Assembly (NCBI GenBank): GCA_026397505.1
Contig: JAPLUR010000041.1
Coordinates: forward strand, 1 to 38,962
DNA length: 38,962 nt
Direction of reading: 5' to 3'
Source of the DNA: Candidatus Zixiibacteriota bacterium
Lineage (GTDB): Bacteria; Zixibacteria; MSB-5A5; GN15; PGXB01
Below the pieces are notes generated by a model, which saw only the letters and a list, made by a program, of their open reading frames with translations, was not told where the DNA came from and did not search any database. Of the stretch, positions 1,141 through 13,982 are shown one piece after another (position 1 is the stretch's first letter; each line of letters opens with the position of its first letter). The position numbers and the translations under genes were made by a program.

Positions 1141-2979
1141 TTGCCACCTTTTGAAAAACTGAAGCGAACACATACTTGCGGCGAATTAAACTCGGGGAAT
1201 ATTGGAGAATCGGTAATCCTTAATGGCTGGGTGCAGTCATACCGTAATCTGGGAGGCCTTCTCTTTATAGATATTCGGGATCGCTATGGAGTGACTCAGG
1301 TAATGCTTAATCCCACCAAGGTTGAGGGGGATGTTTTTGCCATTGCCGCCAAAGCCCGCAACGAATTTGTGGTCGCGGTTGAGGGGAAAGTGCAGAAGCG
1401 GCCGGAAGGGACCGAGAATAAGAATCTTCCCAGTGGTGAAATTGAGGTGGCGGTAGATAAATTCCATATTCTGGCGGAATCAAAGACCCCCCCATTCGAA
1501 ATAGAAGATGACACCAATGCCAGCGAGGTTCTCCGGCTGGAATACCGCTATCTTGACCTGCGGCGCCGACCGCTGCAGGATAAAATCCGGGTGCGGCACC
1601 ATTGCACGATGGCGATAAGAGAATATCTTTCGAACCAGGGATTTCTGGAGATTGAAACGCCGCTCCTGATGCGCTCGACGCCGGAAGGGGCGCGCGATTA
1701 TGTTGTCCCCAGTCGCAACCAGAAAGGGAAATTTTACGCCCTGCCGCAATCGCCGCAGCTTCTAAAGCAGATACTGATGATTTCCGGGTTTGACCGTTAT
1801 TTCCAATTGGCCCGCTGTCTTCGCGATGAGGACCTTCGCGCGGATCGTCAGCCCGAGCATACCCAGATTGACCTGGAAATGTCCTTTGTTACCAAAGAGG
1901 ATGTCTTTGCGGTGGCTGAGGGAATGATGGCGCACCTGTTCAAGAAGGTACTGAATGCTGAAATTGAAACGCCATTCCCGCAGTTTGAATACGCCGAGGT
2001 GATGAACCGCTGGGGTATCGACAAGCCGGATATCCGTTTTGCGATGGAAATCGTCGACCTCACGGAATTAGCCAGGAATTGCGGGTTCAGGGTCTTTACC
2101 GATTCCATACAAAATGGCGGCGTTGTCAAGGGTATCTGTCTTAAAGGAGGAGCCGATTATTCCCGCAAGCAGATAGATGATCTTACAGCATTCGCAAAAA
2201 ACCTGGGCGCCGGCGGACTGGCCTATATATTGAAGCATAAGGACGGCGACCGGTCGCCGATTACCAAATTCATCGGCGAGGAATTGAAAGACCTAATCTG
2301 CGCCGAAGCCGAGGTCGCGGCCGGTGATGCCCTTTTCATAATTTCCGATAAGAGATTAAAGGCGGAATCGATTCTGGGACAGATAAGACTGCACCTGGGG
2401 AAAGCGCACAATCTGATAGATGCCAAGAGCTGGAAATTTCTCTGGGTGACACGATTCCCGCTTTTTGAATACAATGAAGAGGAAAAACGCCTGGATGCCA
2501 TGCATAATATAGTCTCCAATCCGGTCGAGGAGGATCTGCCTTTTCTGGATGAAGCCGATCGCACCACACTGCCTCCGGGTCACCCGGATCATCCACTGCG
2601 GAGAATTCGGGCGGAGCAATATGATCTGGTGCTCAACGGCACGGAGCTGGCATCGGGCAGCATAAGAATCAATCGGCGCGAGCTGCAACAGAAGGTGCTG
2701 AATATTCTTGGAATATCGAACGAGCGGGCCGAAAGGATGTTCGGTTTTCTTCTGCGGGCTCTTGAATACGGCGCCCCGCCGCATGGAGGTGTTGCCGCCG
2801 GGCTGGACAGGATTGTGGCGCTCATGACCGGCGCCGAGAGTATCCGCGAGGTGATCGCCTTTCCCAAGACCGCCTCGGCCGCCTCATTGATGGATGGCGC
2901 ACCCTCGGACATCGACCCGGAGCAGTTGCGTGAACTGGGACTGCGCCTGGATGATTCCATAATATCGCAGGGCAAATGA
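1141..2979 (+). CDS. aspS: Aspartate--tRNA ligase
   Basis: This class II synthetase charges tRNA-Asp (or both tRNA-Asp and tRNA-Asn) with aspartate. At 612 residues it has the full bacterial-type length: an N-terminal OB anticodon-binding domain (about 1-115), the catalytic core interrupted by the GAD insertion, motif 2 near 225-245 (LRDEDLRADRQPEHTQID) and motif 3 near 554 (GLDRIVALMTG). The start is a TTG with GGAG six bases upstream. In the OB domain the position that carries His in the well-studied non-discriminating Pseudomonas enzyme appears to be Leu (RNLGGLLF), which leans toward a discriminating enzyme; this is a soft inference. It heads an operon and overlaps phoH through ATGA. Confidence 0.98.
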   Translation: MPPFEKLKRTHTCGELNSGNIGESVILNGWVQSYRNLGGLLFIDIRDRYGVTQVMLNPTKVEGDVFAIAAKARNEFVVAVEGKVQKRPEGTENKNLPSGEIEVAVDKFHILAESKTPPFEIEDDTNASEVLRLEYRYLDLRRRPLQDKIRVRHHCTMAIREYLSNQGFLEIETPLLMRSTPEGARDYVVPSRNQKGKFYALPQSPQLLKQILMISGFDRYFQLARCLRDEDLRADRQPEHTQIDLEMSFVTKEDVFAVAEGMMAHLFKKVLNAEIETPFPQFEYAEVMNRWGIDKPDIRFAMEIVDLTELARNCGFRVFTDSIQNGGVVKGICLKGGADYSRKQIDDLTAFAKNLGAGGLAYILKHKDGDRSPITKFIGEELKDLICAEAEVAAGDALFIISDKRLKAESILGQIRLHLGKAHNLIDAKSWKFLWVTRFPLFEYNEEEKRLDAMHNIVSNPVEEDLPFLDEADRTTLPPGHPDHPLRRIRAEQYDLVLNGTELASGSIRINRRELQQKVLNILGISNERAERMFGFLLRALEYGAPPHGGVAAGLDRIVALMTGAESIREVIAFPKTASAASLMDGAPSDIDPEQLRELGLRLDDSIISQGK

Positions 2980-3959
2980 GTACGGAAACAGAACAGAAAA
3001 TATCCAAAACTGTCTATCTTGAAGGCCTCGACCCGAGGTTGCTGTTCGGGCAGAACGATATTTTCCTTCGGGCCATTGAAAAGGGTTTCACCGCTTCCAT
3101 TGTCGCCCGCGGCGACAGAATCGCAATCGAGGGAAAACCGGAGGAGGTGGAGCAGGTGGTCAGTCTCTTTAAAGACCTGATGGCTCGCCTGGAACAGGGA
3201 GCTTTCATAACGGAGCAATATCTCAATTATTCCATGGAAATGGTTAAAGAAGCCGGCGGCGGCCCGGCGGAATTAATTGCCGCCAATCAAATGGCCAATG
3301 CCGCGCTCAAGAAGACGGTGCGGCCGAAGACGGTTGGGCAGAAGGTTTATCTGGATACTATCGCCGAGAATGATATTGTCTTTTCCATCGGTCCGGCGGG
3401 AACAGGCAAGACTTACCTGGCCGTTGCGGTCGCGGTGGCGGCCCTGAAGAACCATGAGGTCAGCAGGATCGTCCTCGTTCGTCCCGCTGTTGAAGCCGGG
3501 GAGTCGCTCGGTTTTCTGCCGGGAGATATCCGCGCCAAGGTCGATCCGTATCTGCGACCCGTCTATGATGCCCTGCATGAGATGATGGCCGCCGAAAAAA
3601 TCAAGAAATTGATCGAACTCGGTATTATCGAGATTCTTCCTCTTGCTTTCATGCGCGGAAGGACACTGAACAATACTTTTGTCATCCTCGATGAGGCCCA
3701 GAATACCACCCCGGCCCAAATGAAGATGTTTTTGACCCGGCTGGGTGAGGGGGCCAGAGCAATTATTACCGGCGATGTAACCCAGATTGATCTGGAAGAT
3801 AAAAAGAATTCCGGGTTGATTGTAATTCAGAAGATATTGACCGGAATCGAAGGGATAAAGTTCGTTTATTTGTCGGACAAGGATGTCGTCCGTCACCCTC
3901 TCGTTCAGAAAATCATCCGTGCCTATGAACGATATGAGAAGGGCCGTCGAAAGGAGTAG
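2976..3959 (+). CDS. phoH: PhoH-family ATPase (PhoH-like/YbeZ)
   Basis: This is a 327-residue PhoH-like protein. It has an N-terminal region of about 110 residues with a KH-like character, then the P-loop NTPase domain with Walker A GPAGTGKT (about 139-146) and Walker B FVILDEAQN (about 236-242). PhoH-like proteins (YbeZ in E. coli) are linked to RNA metabolism and often sit next to ybeY, as here with one gene between. The start overlaps the aspS stop (ATGA). Near its stop codon the gene contains the AAGGAG that probably serves the next gene. The exact biochemical role of the family is still debated. Confidence 0.95.
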   Translation: MSTETEQKISKTVYLEGLDPRLLFGQNDIFLRAIEKGFTASIVARGDRIAIEGKPEEVEQVVSLFKDLMARLEQGAFITEQYLNYSMEMVKEAGGGPAELIAANQMANAALKKTVRPKTVGQKVYLDTIAENDIVFSIGPAGTGKTYLAVAVAVAALKNHEVSRIVLVRPAVEAGESLGFLPGDIRAKVDPYLRPVYDALHEMMAAEKIKKLIELGIIEILPLAFMRGRTLNNTFVILDEAQNTTPAQMKMFLTRLGEGARAIITGDVTQIDLEDKKNSGLIVIQKILTGIEGIKFVYLSDKDVVRHPLVQKIIRAYERYEKGRRKE

Positions 3960-8342: not shown

Positions 8343-8364
8343 TCTCAGGTTGGAGGAAAAGACG

Positions 8365-9690
8365 GTGACGAAAACAAAGGAAGATGTTTTAAGATTAATC
8401 GACGATGCCGGAGTCAGGTATATCCGGCTTAACTTTACCGACATTCTGGGGCGGTTGAAAGGAATGTCGATCACCCGTTCCGAAATCGAGACGGTTCTGG
8501 AGCGGGGGCAGGGATTCGACGGCTCCTCAATCGAGGGGTTTGTCCGTATCGAGGAATCGGACTTGATGGCTATCCCGGATTTGCGGACTTTCCGCATCAT
8601 CCCCTGGGATATCGGCGGCGAGCGAACGGCTATGATGTTCTGCGATATCCAGAACCATGACGGCACCCCCTATGCCGGCGACCCCCGTTGGGCTCTCAAA
8701 AGAATGCTGGAAAAGCTGGCCAAGAAGGGATTGAGCGCCTATATGGGGCCGGAATTGGAGTTTTTCTATTTCAAGGATGAACTGACACCTCAGATTCTCG
8801 ACCGGGGGGGGTATTTCGACTATGGCTCGTTTGACCTGGGGACACAGGTGGTCAAGAAGACCACGACCGCCCTGGAGCTGCTGGGGATTCCGGTGGAATG
8901 CTCACACCATGAGGTTGCTCCCAGCCAGCAGGAGATCGATTTGAAGTACCAGGAGGCGCTGGTGATGGCCGATTTCGCCCAGATATATAAGTTTGTCGTT
9001 AAAGAGGTCGCCGCTGAGAATGAAATTTACGCCTCCTTTATGCCCAAGCCGCTCCACGCCGAAAATGGCTCGGGGATGCACAACCATATGTCGATTTTCA
9101 AGGGGGACACCAACCTGTTCTATGCCAAGGACGATCCCTATCATCTTTCCGAAATGGCCAAGCAATTCATAGCCGGAATTCTGACTCATGTCAAGGAAAT
9201 CACCCTGGTTTTGAATCAATGGGTGAACTCCTACAAGCGACTGGTGGTAGGTTTTGAGGCGCCGGTTTATATCTCGTGGGGGTGCCGCAATCGTTCCAGC
9301 CTGGTGCGGGTGCCGATGTTCAAAACCGGGCATGAAAAATCAACCAGGGTCGAACTTCGCTCTCCCGATCCGGCCTGTAACCCGTACCTGGCGTTCGCCG
9401 TTATGCTGGCCGCCGGGTTGACCGGTATCGAAAAGAAATATGCGCTGCCGGATCCGGTGGAGGAGAATATCTTTGCTATGACGGCCGAGGAACGCGCCAA
9501 GAAAAAGATAGATGCTCTTCCGGATTCGCTGGAAAACGCCATCAGGGAAACCGAAAAATCAAAACTGGTGCGCGAAGCGCTCGGTGACCACATCTTTGAG
9601 CAGTTGATCGCCAACAAGAAAGTGGAGTGGGACGAATATCGCATCAATGTCACCGACTATGAAATAAGCAAATATCTGCCTTTCCTGTGA
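8365..9690 (+). CDS. glnA: Glutamine synthetase, type I (GSI-alpha-like)
   Basis: This enzyme makes glutamine from glutamate, ammonia and ATP, and forms a dodecamer in the family. I start it at GTG 8365, which has GGAGG eight bases upstream; a TTG at 8350 in the same frame would place the SD inside the gene. The resulting 441 residues match the short GSI-alpha class (Bacillus/Thermotoga type) rather than the about 470-residue adenylylated GSI-beta class, and I find no adenylylation-loop tyrosine motif. Conserved blocks are DGSSIEGFVRIEESDL, GPELEFF, NGSGMHNHMS, NQWVNSYKRL and the final helices. Its glutamine product is the amide donor for GatA/GatB encoded next; gatA overlaps its stop. Confidence 0.97.
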   Translation: MTKTKEDVLRLIDDAGVRYIRLNFTDILGRLKGMSITRSEIETVLERGQGFDGSSIEGFVRIEESDLMAIPDLRTFRIIPWDIGGERTAMMFCDIQNHDGTPYAGDPRWALKRMLEKLAKKGLSAYMGPELEFFYFKDELTPQILDRGGYFDYGSFDLGTQVVKKTTTALELLGIPVECSHHEVAPSQQEIDLKYQEALVMADFAQIYKFVVKEVAAENEIYASFMPKPLHAENGSGMHNHMSIFKGDTNLFYAKDDPYHLSEMAKQFIAGILTHVKEITLVLNQWVNSYKRLVVGFEAPVYISWGCRNRSSLVRVPMFKTGHEKSTRVELRSPDPACNPYLAFAVMLAAGLTGIEKKYALPDPVEENIFAMTAEERAKKKIDALPDSLENAIRETEKSKLVREALGDHIFEQLIANKKVEWDEYRINVTDYEISKYLPFL

Positions 9691-11123
9691 TAGCCGACAA
9701 CCATAATCTGCCGGCCAGCGAAATAATCGACGGCCTGAAAAAGAAAAGGTTCAGTGCGGTCGAAATCTGCTCCGAGGCGCTGGCTGCGGCTGAAAGCACC
9801 GGCCGCGGTCTGAATGCGTTTATTACCCTGACCGGGGAGAAGGCCATGAAGCAGGCGGAGGCGGTTGATCGCAAGATCGCCGCCGGCGAGAAAATCGGCC
9901 CCCTGGCCGGAGTCCCGATTGCACTCAAAGATAATATCTGCCTGACCGATTATCCCACCACCTGTGCTTCGCATATCCTTGACGGTTTTATCCCTCCTTA
10001 TGATGCCACCTGTGCGCGAAGATTGATTGAAGCCGATGCCATCATCATCGGCAAGACCAACATGGATGAATTCGCCATGGGTTCCTCGAATGAGAACTCG
10101 TATTATGGGCCGGTGAAGAATCCGGTCGGGGAGGGGTTGGTTCCCGGCGGCTCCTCCGGCGGCTCGGCGGCGGCAGTCGCCTCGGGCATCGTGCCGATTG
10201 CCTTTGGGTCGGAGACGGGCGGTTCGGTGCGTCAGCCGGCCGCATTCTGCGGGGTGTACGGACTTAAACCGTCGTACGGTGCCATTTCCCGTTATGGTCT
10301 GGTGGCCTTTGCCTCATCGATGGATCAGATCGGCCCGCTGGCGAGAAATTGCTATGATATTGCTCTGGCCTTCAGTGTCGTCTCGGGCCGGGATGAAAAC
10401 GATTCCACCTCGGTGGCATTCAATCATCCCGATTATCCATCGCTCGTTGAAAGCGAGCGGAAGTTTAAATTTGGAATCCCGCTGGAATTTTTCCGGGAAG
10501 GGTTGGATGCTGATGTAGCAGAGAATATTGAAAGCGCAATAAAGCTGTTTGAGAAGAACGGTCATCAGGTGAGGGAGATTTCGCTTCCCCACAGCCCCCT
10601 GGCGATTGCCATCTATTATATCATCGCCGATGCGGAGGCCTCCTCCAATCTGGCCCGATATGACGGTATTCGATATGGCCTTCGTGAAAAGGATGATGAG
10701 CTGATCGCCATGTATAATAAAACTCGCCGGGCCGGTTTTGGGGTGGAAGTGAAACGAAGAATTCTTCTTGGTACCTATGTCCTCTCCGCCGGTTATTATG
10801 AGGCCTATTATTTTAAGGCCCAGCAGGTGAGAGAGTTGCTCCGCATCGATTTCGAAAAGGCTTTTGAGGAAGTAGATCTGCTGATCACGCCGACCTCACC
10901 CACGGCGGCTTTCCGGATGGGGGAAAGGCTGACCGACCCGCTGGCGATGTACCTATCTGATATCTACACCGCACCGGCCAATCTGGCCGGAATTCCGGCA
11001 ATATCTGTACCCTGCGGCACCGTTGCCGATGGCCGTCCGGTCGGAATCCAATTCATGGCGCGGGCCTTCGATGAGCTGTCACTCTTTCAGGCGGCATCGC
11101 GTTTGGAGAAACTGAGAGCATAG
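9687..11123 (+). CDS. gatA: Asp-tRNA(Asn)/Glu-tRNA(Gln) amidotransferase subunit A
   Basis: GatA is the glutaminase subunit of the GatCAB complex that converts Glu-tRNA(Gln) and/or Asp-tRNA(Asn) to the amidated form. The 478-residue protein carries the amidase-signature Ser-cisSer-Lys triad: Lys81 in ALKDN, the cis-Ser in GGSSGGSAAA (about 156-157) and the nucleophile in GSETGGSVRQP (about 181). The GTG start overlaps the glnA stop as GTGA, so the two genes are translationally coupled. The gene is separated from gatB by a hydrolase gene, and no gatC lies in the window. Confidence 0.97.
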   Translation: MIADNHNLPASEIIDGLKKKRFSAVEICSEALAAAESTGRGLNAFITLTGEKAMKQAEAVDRKIAAGEKIGPLAGVPIALKDNICLTDYPTTCASHILDGFIPPYDATCARRLIEADAIIIGKTNMDEFAMGSSNENSYYGPVKNPVGEGLVPGGSSGGSAAAVASGIVPIAFGSETGGSVRQPAAFCGVYGLKPSYGAISRYGLVAFASSMDQIGPLARNCYDIALAFSVVSGRDENDSTSVAFNHPDYPSLVESERKFKFGIPLEFFREGLDADVAENIESAIKLFEKNGHQVREISLPHSPLAIAIYYIIADAEASSNLARYDGIRYGLREKDDELIAMYNKTRRAGFGVEVKRRILLGTYVLSAGYYEAYYFKAQQVRELLRIDFEKAFEEVDLLITPTSPTAAFRMGERLTDPLAMYLSDIYTAPANLAGIPAISVPCGTVADGRPVGIQFMARAFDELSLFQAASRLEKLRA

Positions 11124-11126
11124 ATT

Positions 11127-11912
11127 ATGCCTTTTATCATTTCGGGCAAGGTAAGAATATATTATGAAGAGAGCGGCGACGGTACACCGCTGGTTTTTCT
11201 TCATGGCTTCACACTTGATCATCGGATGTGGGAAAAACAAGTGGAATACTTTTCCAGGAAATACCGCGTAATTGTCTTTGATGCCCGCGGCCACGGCCGT
11301 TCCGACGGCCCTGAAACCGGTTACGCTCGCGAGGATCGGGCTGATGATATCTTGAATCTGAGTGAACATCTGGAATTTCATCGTTTTCATCTGGTCGGCC
11401 TTTCGATGGGGGGAGGCGACGCCTTGAGTTTCGCCATTGACCATCAGGACCGGCTTTTGTCGCTGACTCTGGCCGATACGGTGGCTTCCGGATATATGCC
11501 GGCAACCAAATTTCGCGATTTCAGCGAGACACTGAAAACCGCGGGGGTGGAAGCGGCGAAAACTGAATTCATTGAATCGACGCTATCATATTATGTCAGG
11601 AAGGATATTGAAATCAGAGATAAACTGGCGATTATGATGAATGATTTCAGCGGCAGGCCCTGGCTCGACCCGATGAGAGGGAATTATCCCAATCGGGATG
11701 ATGTGCGGCTCTAGGCCAGCGTCAGAATCCCAACTCTAATCATAGTCGTGAAGAAAGATATGGCCTGGGCACCCCTGGCGAAGATATTAAATGAAACGAT
11801 GCTTGATTCACAGCTCGAAATTCTGCCGGGCGTCGGGCATATGTCCAATATGGAAGCGCCGGATAAATTCAATGCCATCCTTGATGCCTTTCTTTTGAAA
11901 GTAGTTAACTGA
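11127..11912 (+). pseudogene. Alpha/beta-hydrolase gene interrupted by an in-frame TAG
   Basis: The frame encodes a typical alpha/beta hydrolase: the oxyanion block LVFLHGFTLDHRMW, DARGHGRSD and the nucleophile elbow GLSMGG with Ser93. At codon 196 (11712-11714) there is a TAG, yet the same frame continues without any shift to a TGA at 11910-11912. The continuation supplies exactly the missing family parts: the strand PTLIIVVKKD with the acid Asp211 and the motif PGVGHMSNMEAPDKF with the catalytic His238. The full product would have 261 codons, normal for the family. Termination at TAG would remove two of three triad residues. Possible explanations are a nonsense mutation, a sequence error, or amber suppression. 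It sits between gatA and gatB in the same operon. Confidence 0.85.
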
Positions 11913-11932
11913 TTGAGAGTATTTGACAGGAT

Positions 11933-13402
11933 ATGGTGGACAAATATCAGATAGATGGATATGAGCCGGTGATAGGGCTGGAAGTACATGCCCAGCTGAC
12001 GACCGAGAGTAAGATCTTCTGCGGCTGTCGGGCGGAATATGGCGCCCCACCCAATTCGTTGACCTGCCCGGTCTGTCTGGGTTTGCCGGGAGCTCTTCCG
12101 GTGCTCAACAAAAGAGCGGTGGAGTATGCTATGCGGATGATTCTGGCCGTCGGCGGCACGGTTCGCCTGCGTTCGATCTTTGCCCGCAAGAACTATTTCT
12201 ATCCGGATCTTCCCAAAGGATATCAGATTTCGCAGTACGACCAGCCGATAGGGGAAGGTGGGGAATTGGCCTTCCGCCTTCATCCCGGTGAAAAAGAAAA
12301 TATTGTTCGCCTTAAAAGGATCCATCTCGAGGAGGATGCCGGCAAATCCCTTCACCCCGAATTGGGTGAAGATTATACAAGAATAGATCTCAACCGCTGC
12401 GGCATACCTCTGCTCGAAATAGTCACGGAACCGGAGATCTTTTCTCCGCAGGAAGCTTACGGCTATCTGGTCAGATTGAAACAGGTGTTGCAGTACCTGC
12501 GGATATGTACCGCGGATATGGAAAAAGGGCATCTGCGTTGTGATGCCAATGTTTCGGTTCGTTTGGCCGGTTCGGAAAGACTGGGAGTAAAGACCGAAGT
12601 CAAGAACATGAATTCTTTCAAGGGGGTGGAACGGGCACTGACTTTTGAAATTGAGCGGCAGGTTGGGGTGCTCAAATCGGGCGGTACCGTTGAACAGATG
12701 ACACTTCTCTGGGATGAGAAACATCAGGAGGCCGAACCGATGCGCACCAAAGAGGAATCGCATGACTACCGTTATTTTCCCGAACCGGATCTGGTGAATC
12801 TGGTGATTGACAGGGAGTGGCTGGAATCGGTTCGGCGCAGTCTGCCGGAGTTGCCCGACGCACGGGCGAGGCGCTTTATGCAGCAGTATGAAATACCCGA
12901 ATATGATGCCGCCGTTCTTACCGAGTCGCGCGGGCTGGCGGATTATTTTGAAGAGGTGATGACCGAATTTGGCGATGGAAAGGCGGCCTCGAATTGGATC
13001 ATGACGGAAGTGCTCAAAGTGGTCAATGAAGCGAGGGTTGAAATTACCGATTTTCGAATCAAGCCGCCGATGATTGCCGAGCTTCTCAATTGTATTCAAA
13101 CCGGGCAGATATCGGGGAAGATGGCCAAAGAAATTTTTGAAGAGATGCTGGCCTCATCGAAATCGGCCGGAGAAATAATTAGAGCCAAGGGGATTGTCCA
13201 GATAAGTGATGATGCGGTTATCGGTGAAATCGTTGCGAAAGTTCTTTCGGAGAATCAGCAGAACGTGAAAAAATATCTATCCGGCAAAACGCAATTATTC
13301 GGCTTCTTTATCGGGCAGGTGATGAAAGAAACGAAAGGGACGGCCAATCCCGGTTTGGTCAATAAAATTCTGCAGGAGAAATTGGATGAACTTGCCGGCT
13401 AA
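11933..13402 (+). CDS. gatB: Asp-tRNA(Asn)/Glu-tRNA(Gln) amidotransferase subunit B
   Basis: GatB is the tRNA-binding kinase subunit that activates the aminoacyl group with ATP and receives ammonia from GatA. The 489 residues include the N-terminal GatB/GatE catalytic domain (YEPVIGLEVHAQL, CGCRAEYGAPPNS, CPVCLGLPGALPVLN with zinc-type cysteines, then RIHLEEDAGK and EIVTEPE) and the C-terminal YqeY-like tail domain (about 340-489). The start is the ATG at 11933; a weak ACAGGAT precedes it. Its last 17 bases overlap purN, so purine genes are coupled to it. Confidence 0.97.
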   Translation: MVDKYQIDGYEPVIGLEVHAQLTTESKIFCGCRAEYGAPPNSLTCPVCLGLPGALPVLNKRAVEYAMRMILAVGGTVRLRSIFARKNYFYPDLPKGYQISQYDQPIGEGGELAFRLHPGEKENIVRLKRIHLEEDAGKSLHPELGEDYTRIDLNRCGIPLLEIVTEPEIFSPQEAYGYLVRLKQVLQYLRICTADMEKGHLRCDANVSVRLAGSERLGVKTEVKNMNSFKGVERALTFEIERQVGVLKSGGTVEQMTLLWDEKHQEAEPMRTKEESHDYRYFPEPDLVNLVIDREWLESVRRSLPELPDARARRFMQQYEIPEYDAAVLTESRGLADYFEEVMTEFGDGKAASNWIMTEVLKVVNEARVEITDFRIKPPMIAELLNCIQTGQISGKMAKEIFEEMLASSKSAGEIIRAKGIVQISDDAVIGEIVAKVLSENQQNVKKYLSGKTQLFGFFIGQVMKETKGTANPGLVNKILQEKLDELAG

Positions 13403-13982
13403 ACTCGCAGTATTTATCTCGGGAGGGGGAACCAACCTTCAGTCGCTGATCGATGCCATCAAGGCAGGGCGGCTGTCGGCGCGGATTGCCCTGGTTGTTT
13501 CCAGCCGGAGCGACGCCTATGGCCTGGTGCGGGCCGAGAATGAGAAGATTGAGACCTTTATTTATAAGGTGAAGGATTTTACCTCCTCGGATGAGGCCGA
13601 AAATCATCTTCTGGCTGTTCTGGAAAAATATGAAATTGATTATATTGCCCTGGCCGGATTCCTCAAGATGGTCCCGGCCTCGATTATAAGGAGATATAAA
13701 GACAGAATAACAAACATTCATCCGGCGCTTTTGCCCAAATACGGCGGCAAAGGGATGTACGGTCATTATGTCCATGAAGCGGTGCTGGCGGCGGGTGATA
13801 AAGAATCAGGCGCCACGGTGCATATTGTTGATGAAATATATGATCATGGCCGTATCCTGAAACAGGGGAGAGTCCCGGTTCTTCCCGGCGATACCCCCGA
13901 AATACTGGCCGAGAGAGTATTGCAGATGGAGCATCAGATTTATCCGGAAGCGCTGGAAAATCTTATCAGAGGAAATAAATAG
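13386..13982 (+). CDS. purN: Phosphoribosylglycinamide formyltransferase (GAR transformylase)
   Basis: PurN transfers a formyl group from 10-formyltetrahydrofolate to GAR in de novo purine synthesis. The 198-residue protein has the ribose-phosphate loop near the N-terminus (ISGGGTNLQSLIDA), the catalytic Asn110 and His112 in NIHPALLP, and the catalytic Asp149 in HIVDEIYDHG. The ATG lies inside the end of gatB (17-base overlap), with GGAG just upstream at 13376-13379. It starts a purN-purC-purH run. Confidence 0.96.
   Translation: MNLPAKLAVFISGGGTNLQSLIDAIKAGRLSARIALVVSSRSDAYGLVRAENEKIETFIYKVKDFTSSDEAENHLLAVLEKYEIDYIALAGFLKMVPASIIRRYKDRITNIHPALLPKYGGKGMYGHYVHEAVLAAGDKESGATVHIVDEIYDHGRILKQGRVPVLPGDTPEILAERVLQMEHQIYPEALENLIRGNK

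What the first reader, a model, noticed from the sequence alone, without database searches (positions are those of the whole stretch)
11700..11912. In-frame amber codon splits the catalytic triad of an operon-borne alpha/beta hydrolase
The frame carries the nucleophile Ser93 before TAG (11712-11714) and, without any shift, the acid (Asp211) and histidine (His238) after it, up to a TGA at 11910. The continuation is clean protein with family motifs, so decay is recent, or the TAG is read. It lies between gatA and gatB, so a nonsense mutation could also reduce gatB expression by polarity. Options are sequencing error, recent nonsense mutation in this strain, or amber suppression.
Basis: partly seen in the sequence, partly recalled or inferred. 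Interest (0 to 1): 0.55.

Follow-up and report, generated by a model that had tools for sequence, protein, structure and literature searches.

The report
Recent amber stop in ordinary hydrolase
A single stop codon interrupts an otherwise well-preserved bacterial esterase-like gene, most likely a recent loss-of-function mutation (or a consensus error) in a gene that some related species lack; nothing found points to a new genetic code.

Summary
TAG 11712-11714 interrupts one frame (ATG 11127 to TGA 11910-11912) of an alpha/beta hydrolase between gatA and gatB. Ser93 lies before the stop, Asp211 and His238 after it; all three are invariant in 30 of 30 aligned sequences, and the 29 orthologs aligned all have a sense codon at the TAG position.

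Recoding is not supported. No CUA tRNA was called among 44 tRNA matches (one anticodon uncalled), no PylS was found, RF1 is present. TAG ends 79 of 319 sampled ORFs (this one counted), including gatA, which sense-TAG would fuse to the hydrolase.

The gene looks dispensable: four related genomes have gatA beside gatB with no hydrolase between, and another carries an internal TGA. The frame beyond TAG is still conserved (47 of 65 residues identical to the nearest ortholog), so inactivation was recent: about 5% neutral change per site at most in a rough simulation.

Best reading: a recent nonsense allele of a dispensable esterase-like gene. A consensus error cannot be excluded without reads. Low-level readthrough is unlikely but not excluded. 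Polarity on gatB is untested. Interest low.

The parts
11127..11714 (+). 5' part of the interrupted alpha/beta hydrolase gene (195 codons and TAG); holds the nucleophile Ser93 in GLSMGG
11712..11714 (+). in-frame amber codon (residue 196); sense codon in the 29 orthologs aligned; falls in the helix just before the strand that leads to the catalytic Asp (model of an ortholog)
11715..11912 (+). conserved continuation (65 codons and TGA) with Asp211 and His238; 47 of 65 residues identical to the nearest ortholog
11748..11750 (+). GTG (Val208) where the 29 aligned orthologs have the Gly that precedes the catalytic Asp by three residues; possible sign of relaxed constraint, weak on its own
9687..11123 (+). 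gatA, itself ended by TAG (11121-11123) and in frame with the hydrolase start: a natural check on whether TAG is sense
11933..13402 (+). gatB, intact, starts 218 nt after the amber codon

Best explanation
A recent nonsense mutation has inactivated a dispensable esterase-like alpha/beta hydrolase. Shown: an in-frame amber codon at residue 196, a sense codon at that place in the 29 orthologs aligned, a conserved frame on both sides, TAG in ordinary use as a stop in this genome, and the gene missing between gatA and gatB in four related genomes. Inferred: ribosomes stop at 11712 and release a 195-residue fragment without the last two core strands, Asp211 and His238, so it cannot be an active hydrolase; gatB is still made from its own start; the remnant will decay, ending as the gatA-gatB junction seen in those relatives.
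For: 29 of 29 aligned orthologs have a sense codon at the TAG column, and among 56 genomes with a match no other has an internal TAG (the TAG in G020 is its natural end, and one partial copy, G048, does not reach residue 196). Four genomes have gatA next to gatB with no hydrolase between (L073, L077, L078, L079) and no ortholog elsewhere at E 1e-30 (two of the four are 77% and 86% complete). G057 has an internal TGA at an otherwise invariant Trp. No decay beyond TAG: identity to the nearest ortholog is 131/195 before and 47/65 after it, and distances to an outgroup are no larger than those of intact genes. A rough neutral simulation puts change since inactivation at about 0.05 per site or less (P 0.056 at 0.05, 0.005 at 0.08) against 47 of 80 four-fold sites differing from the nearest relative. 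RF1 over cut-off, no PylS, no CUA called among 44 tRNA matches. TAG ends 79 of 319 sampled ORFs, this one counted. In a predicted model of an ortholog (mean pLDDT 94.7) residue 196 lies in the helix before the strand leading to Asp211.
Against: The conserved continuation is equally what a consensus error or an effective bypass would give. The one departure from an invariant column (Gly208 to Val) is not unusual: 9 of the 29 other sequences show at least one such departure, one of those being an artefact of where the sequence was started. The nearest ortholog is only about 67% identical, so the age rests on a rough simulation. No reads and no second genome of the genus were available.
Confidence: 0.62

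Rival explanations
1. Consensus or assembly error: the population carries a sense codon at 11712-11714 and the gene is intact.
For: The assembly is in 147 contigs, the break is a single in-frame codon, and there is no other stop or frameshift in the 260 remaining codons. A true gene and a wrong base call predict exactly the conserved continuation seen.
Against: No homopolymer at the site. The gene also departs from a 29-of-29 invariant Gly nearby, which is weak evidence for a real inactive allele. In the nine other readthrough frames that had a Pfam match, no best-scoring stretch crosses the stop, so other single-codon breaks were not seen in the sample; six more frames had no match and say nothing.
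Confidence: 0.28
2. The amber codon is real but partly bypassed by near-cognate readthrough, so that a little full-length hydrolase is made and the downstream half stays under selection.
For: The downstream half is as conserved as the upstream half. Belinky et al. 2021 (PMC7918605; abstract and 12 passages seen) argue that many in-frame stops in bacterial genes keep dN/dS below 1.
Against: No relative shares the stop (0 of 29 aligned orthologs), RF1 is present, and the stop context folds no better than shuffles (z -0.51). Recent mutation explains the conservation without bypass. The same paper assumes that the vast majority of its events have no functional recoding and that many are short-lived.
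Confidence: 0.08
3. Dedicated amber recoding: pyrrolysine, a suppressor tRNA, or genome-wide TAG reassignment.
For: Only the open continuation itself.
Against: PylS absent; no CUA anticodon called among 44 tRNA matches, one anticodon not called; RF1 present; TAG ends 79 of 319 sampled ORFs and gatA, which would be fused to the hydrolase; in the three other TAG frames with a Pfam match no best stretch crosses the TAG, three further TAG frames had no match.
Confidence: 0.01
4. A split hydrolase: the downstream piece is started separately (GTG 11748 or ATG 11760) and joins the upstream piece.
For: In-frame start codons follow the TAG at codons 11 and 15.
Against: By eye no ribosome-binding site precedes them; a start at GTG 11748 would omit the strand before Asp211 and one at ATG 11760 would omit Asp211 itself. 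None of the 29 aligned orthologs is split this way.
Confidence: 0.01

Closest known systems
Bacterial genes with one in-frame nonsense codon (Belinky et al. 2021, PMC7918605; abstract and 12 passages seen)
   Same: One in-frame stop inside an otherwise conserved gene; the sequence beyond it keeps the signature of a protein.
   Different: In the passages seen the large-scale part of the paper focuses on stops shared by two or more species; here the stop is in one genome and no aligned ortholog shares it.
PcaD / aryl-esterase-like alpha/beta hydrolases (TIGR02427; P. fluorescens esterase 1va4; Burkholderia enol-lactonase 2xua; Thermogutta esterase 4uhc)
   Same: Fold, Ser-Asp-His triad and length; among the best solved-structure matches of the ortholog family by sequence and by predicted fold.
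   Different: The readthrough product scores far below the curated cut-off (TIGR02427 110.7 against 255.85 bits), so no substrate can be named; in this genome the gene is cut after residue 195.
Pyrrolysine / amber-suppression systems
   Same: In-frame TAG with a conserved continuation.
   Different: No PylS, no CUA tRNA called, and TAG is a common terminator.

Membership tests
Nonsense-mutated gene (recent pseudogene) | in-frame stop where orthologs have sense codons | tested here: met
   0 of 29 aligned orthologs have a stop there; 29 aligned of 41 ortholog-like rows
Nonsense-mutated gene (recent pseudogene) | the break removes residues needed for activity | tested here: met
   Asp211 and His238, 30 of 30 conserved, and the last two strands of an ortholog's model lie beyond the stop
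Nonsense-mutated gene (recent pseudogene) | relaxed constraint after inactivation | tested here: inconclusive
   no acceleration; one departure from an invariant column, as 9 of the 29 others also show
Nonsense-mutated gene (recent pseudogene) | stop present in the reads and the organism | not testable with these tools
   no reads and no second genome of the genus
Pyrrolysine-encoding organism | PylS | tested here: not met
   no match at E 0.001 in the own genome; 13 of 14 control genomes ring, one of them over the cut-off (the answer does not say which)
Pyrrolysine or amber-suppressor organism | tRNA with CUA anticodon | tested here: not met
   44 tRNA matches run through ARAGORN; one anticodon not called, TTCC in an 8-nt loop by eye
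TAG-reassigned genetic code | TAG rare or absent as terminator, RF1 lost | tested here: not met
   79 of 319 sampled ORFs end in TAG; RF1 513.9 bits over a cut-off of 423.25
PcaD 3-oxoadipate enol-lactonase (TIGR02427) | score over the curated cut-off | tested here: not met
   110.7 against 255.85 bits
Alpha/beta hydrolase superfamily (Pfam Abhydrolase_1 / Abhydrolase_6) | score over the curated cut-off and Ser-Asp-His triad | tested here: met
   91.8 and 82.5 bits for the read-through frame, triad conserved 30 of 30

The most novel reading that the evidence does not exclude
The amber codon is a leaky switch: the cell makes a small amount of full-length hydrolase by near-cognate readthrough, enough to keep the downstream half under selection and to set a low dose of the enzyme beside gatB.
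Probability: 0.05. Interest if true: 0.4.

Novelty: new member of a known kind. Interest (0 to 1): 0.1.

Why it matters
Mostly it matters for annotation: the gene should be marked as interrupted rather than called as a 195-residue enzyme, and this genome should not be listed as an amber-recoding organism. The comparison also shows that this hydrolase sits in a glnA-(gatA)-hydrolase-(gatB)-purN neighbourhood in several families of the order, staying where gatA and gatB are not found beside it and missing from some genomes that keep them.

Tried and rejected
Genome-wide recoding was tested by PylS, RF1, tRNA anticodons and stop usage and rejected. Readthrough extensions in a 439-kb sample (the window plus 20 stretches of 20 kb): 46 stops have a coding-like extension of at least 25 codons, 17 of them TAG. 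I put 16 of the 46 through Pfam (7 TAG frames including this one, 9 TAA or TGA frames). Six of the 16 had no Pfam match and say nothing (three TAG, three TAA); in the nine others with a match the best-scoring stretches lie on one side of the stop; only the hydrolase has a domain crossing it. The other 30 (10 of them TAG, gatA included) were not checked beyond the table, where the first ATG mostly follows the stop closely.

Relaxed constraint beyond the TAG was looked for by residues unseen in the aligned relatives (6 of 64 after, 11 of 195 before), departures from invariant columns and relative distances; none is out of the ordinary. A structured stop context was not found. A split gene with restart was considered and rejected. 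Terminator-like sites within 11000-12100: none; four weak promoter-like matches against 1.1 expected, not interpreted.

Literature: (recoding terms) listed 2 papers, neither opened; (27 papers, 8 listed) gave PMC7918605; (this gene neighbourhood) held no paper. The viral fold library, pdb_via and the plasmid, phage and E. coli searches were not used.

Full report
What is there. The window is contig C41 of a 3.4-Mb, 147-contig genome. Between gatA (9687-11123) and gatB (11933-13402) lies an alpha/beta hydrolase frame that opens with ATG at 11127, meets TAG at 11712-11714 and continues without a shift for 65 codons to TGA at 11910-11912. The read-through frame matches Pfam Abhydrolase_6 over residues 22-250, across the stop. 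Ser93, Asp211 and His238 are each conserved in 30 of 30 aligned sequences, the window's included.

Comparison with relatives. Three of them (L026, L027, L030) were aligned from an internal residue, because the match began there. At the TAG column all 29 have a sense codon: Ala, Ser, Val, Cys, Ile or Leu. Identity to the nearest ortholog is 131/195 before and 47/65 after the stop. Against the outgroup L010 the downstream part of the window gene scores 44/65, the two intact neighbours 43/68 and 47/65, so there is no acceleration. One residue departs from a column invariant in the 29 (Gly208 to Val, three residues before the Asp); but 9 of the 29 others, one by an artefact of its start, show at least one departure of that kind, so this is weak.

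How old. A rough simulation of neutral change over the 260 sense codons asked how often one would see no second stop and at most one change among 31 invariant positions: 0.71 of runs at 0.01 changes per site, 0.056 at 0.05 and 0.005 at 0.08. The nearest relative differs at 47 of 80 four-fold sites. If the gene is dead, it died recently. The simulation assumes that the whole frame became neutral at once and starts from the present sequence.

Is TAG read here? PylS gave no match in the own genome (13 of 14 control genomes ring, one of them over the cut-off). RF1 is present over its cut-off, as is RF2. RF00005 gave 44 tRNA matches; all were run through ARAGORN (30, 14) and none was called CUA. 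One, on contig C16, has an anticodon that ARAGORN does not call; by eye it is TTCC in an 8-nt loop, and an odd tRNA-like stretch beside it looks like TTG. In a 439-kb sample 79 of 319 ORFs selected as genes by a simple codon score end in TAG, this one counted, and 10 of 33 in the window. gatA itself ends in TAG and lies in frame with the hydrolase, three bases apart, so a cell that read TAG as sense would fuse the two. Of 46 stops with a coding-like extension (17 TAG) I put 16 through Pfam: six had no match, nine had their best stretches on one side of the stop, and only the hydrolase has a domain crossing it.

The gene looks dispensable in this group. Of the 30 loci, 19 show gatA, hydrolase and gatB in that order, one (L016) is cut upstream but has gatB downstream, eight (L005, L008, L009, L011, L013, L014, L022, L030) show glnA-hydrolase-purN with no gatA or full gatB in the fetched stretch (L014 has a weak partial GatB-like match), and two (L025, L029) show only purN downstream. 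Conversely, of seven genomes with a full gatB match (20 genomes given, picked mostly because they lacked a full ortholog), four have gatA beside gatB with no hydrolase between them (L073, L077, L078, L079) and no ortholog elsewhere at E 1e-30; two of these, G008 and G049, are only 77% and 86% complete. Of 80 genomes of the order 56 have a match. Four rows bear a stop; two of these stops are the natural ends (G020, G035), one is the window's TAG and one, in G057, is an internal TGA at an otherwise invariant Trp, the ninth codon from a contig end. Copies in G004, G048 and G057 are cut by contig ends.

What is lost. A model of the intact ortholog L003 (mean pLDDT 94.7; 17-sequence alignment) places residue 196 in the helix 192-198, before the strand 203-208 that leads to the Asp; the strand 229-233 and the His follow. 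Its best solved-structure matches are aryl esterases, with the PcaD enol-lactonase close behind (by sequence). The readthrough product is far below the NCBIfam cut-off for PcaD, so I name no substrate.

Verdict. The most economical account is a recent nonsense mutation in a dispensable esterase-like gene (0.62). A consensus error (0.28) predicts the same conserved continuation and cannot be separated without reads. Low-level readthrough (0.08) is allowed but has nothing particular in its favour; Belinky et al. 2021 (PMC7918605; abstract and 12 passages seen) argue that such events are frequent in bacteria, while assuming that the vast majority have no functional recoding. Dedicated recoding is contradicted. 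Whether the stop lowers gatB expression was not testable.

Noticed in passing
L133 (G000:C16) 2405-2551: Two odd tRNA-like genes in tandem; the second has an 8-nt anticodon loop by eye (TTCC) and no anticodon called by ARAGORN, the first scores only weakly, as tmRNA (15.3 bits, gathering 47). They lie upstream of an ORF (2888-3448) that recalls Panacea/SocA-type proteins (recalled, not searched). An 8-nt loop could mean a frameshift-suppressor tRNA or a decayed gene.
   Followed up: partly
L005, L008, L009, L011, L013, L014, L022, L030; window 8350-13982: The hydrolase stays between glnA and purN in genomes where gatA and gatB are not found in the fetched stretch, so its most constant neighbours seem to be glnA and purN rather than the amidotransferase genes.
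   Followed up: partly
L109 (G057:C34), near the contig end: Another copy of the hydrolase has an in-frame TGA at an otherwise invariant Trp position, the ninth codon from the contig end: a second nonsense allele or an end-of-contig error.
   Followed up: partly
window 11748-11750: The codon that replaces the invariant Gly is GTG, a possible start codon, 33 nt after the amber codon; no ribosome-binding site seen by eye.
   Followed up: partly
window 11711-13099, minus strand: 462-codon open frame antisense to gatB and the end of the hydrolase; probably a shadow ORF.
   Followed up: no
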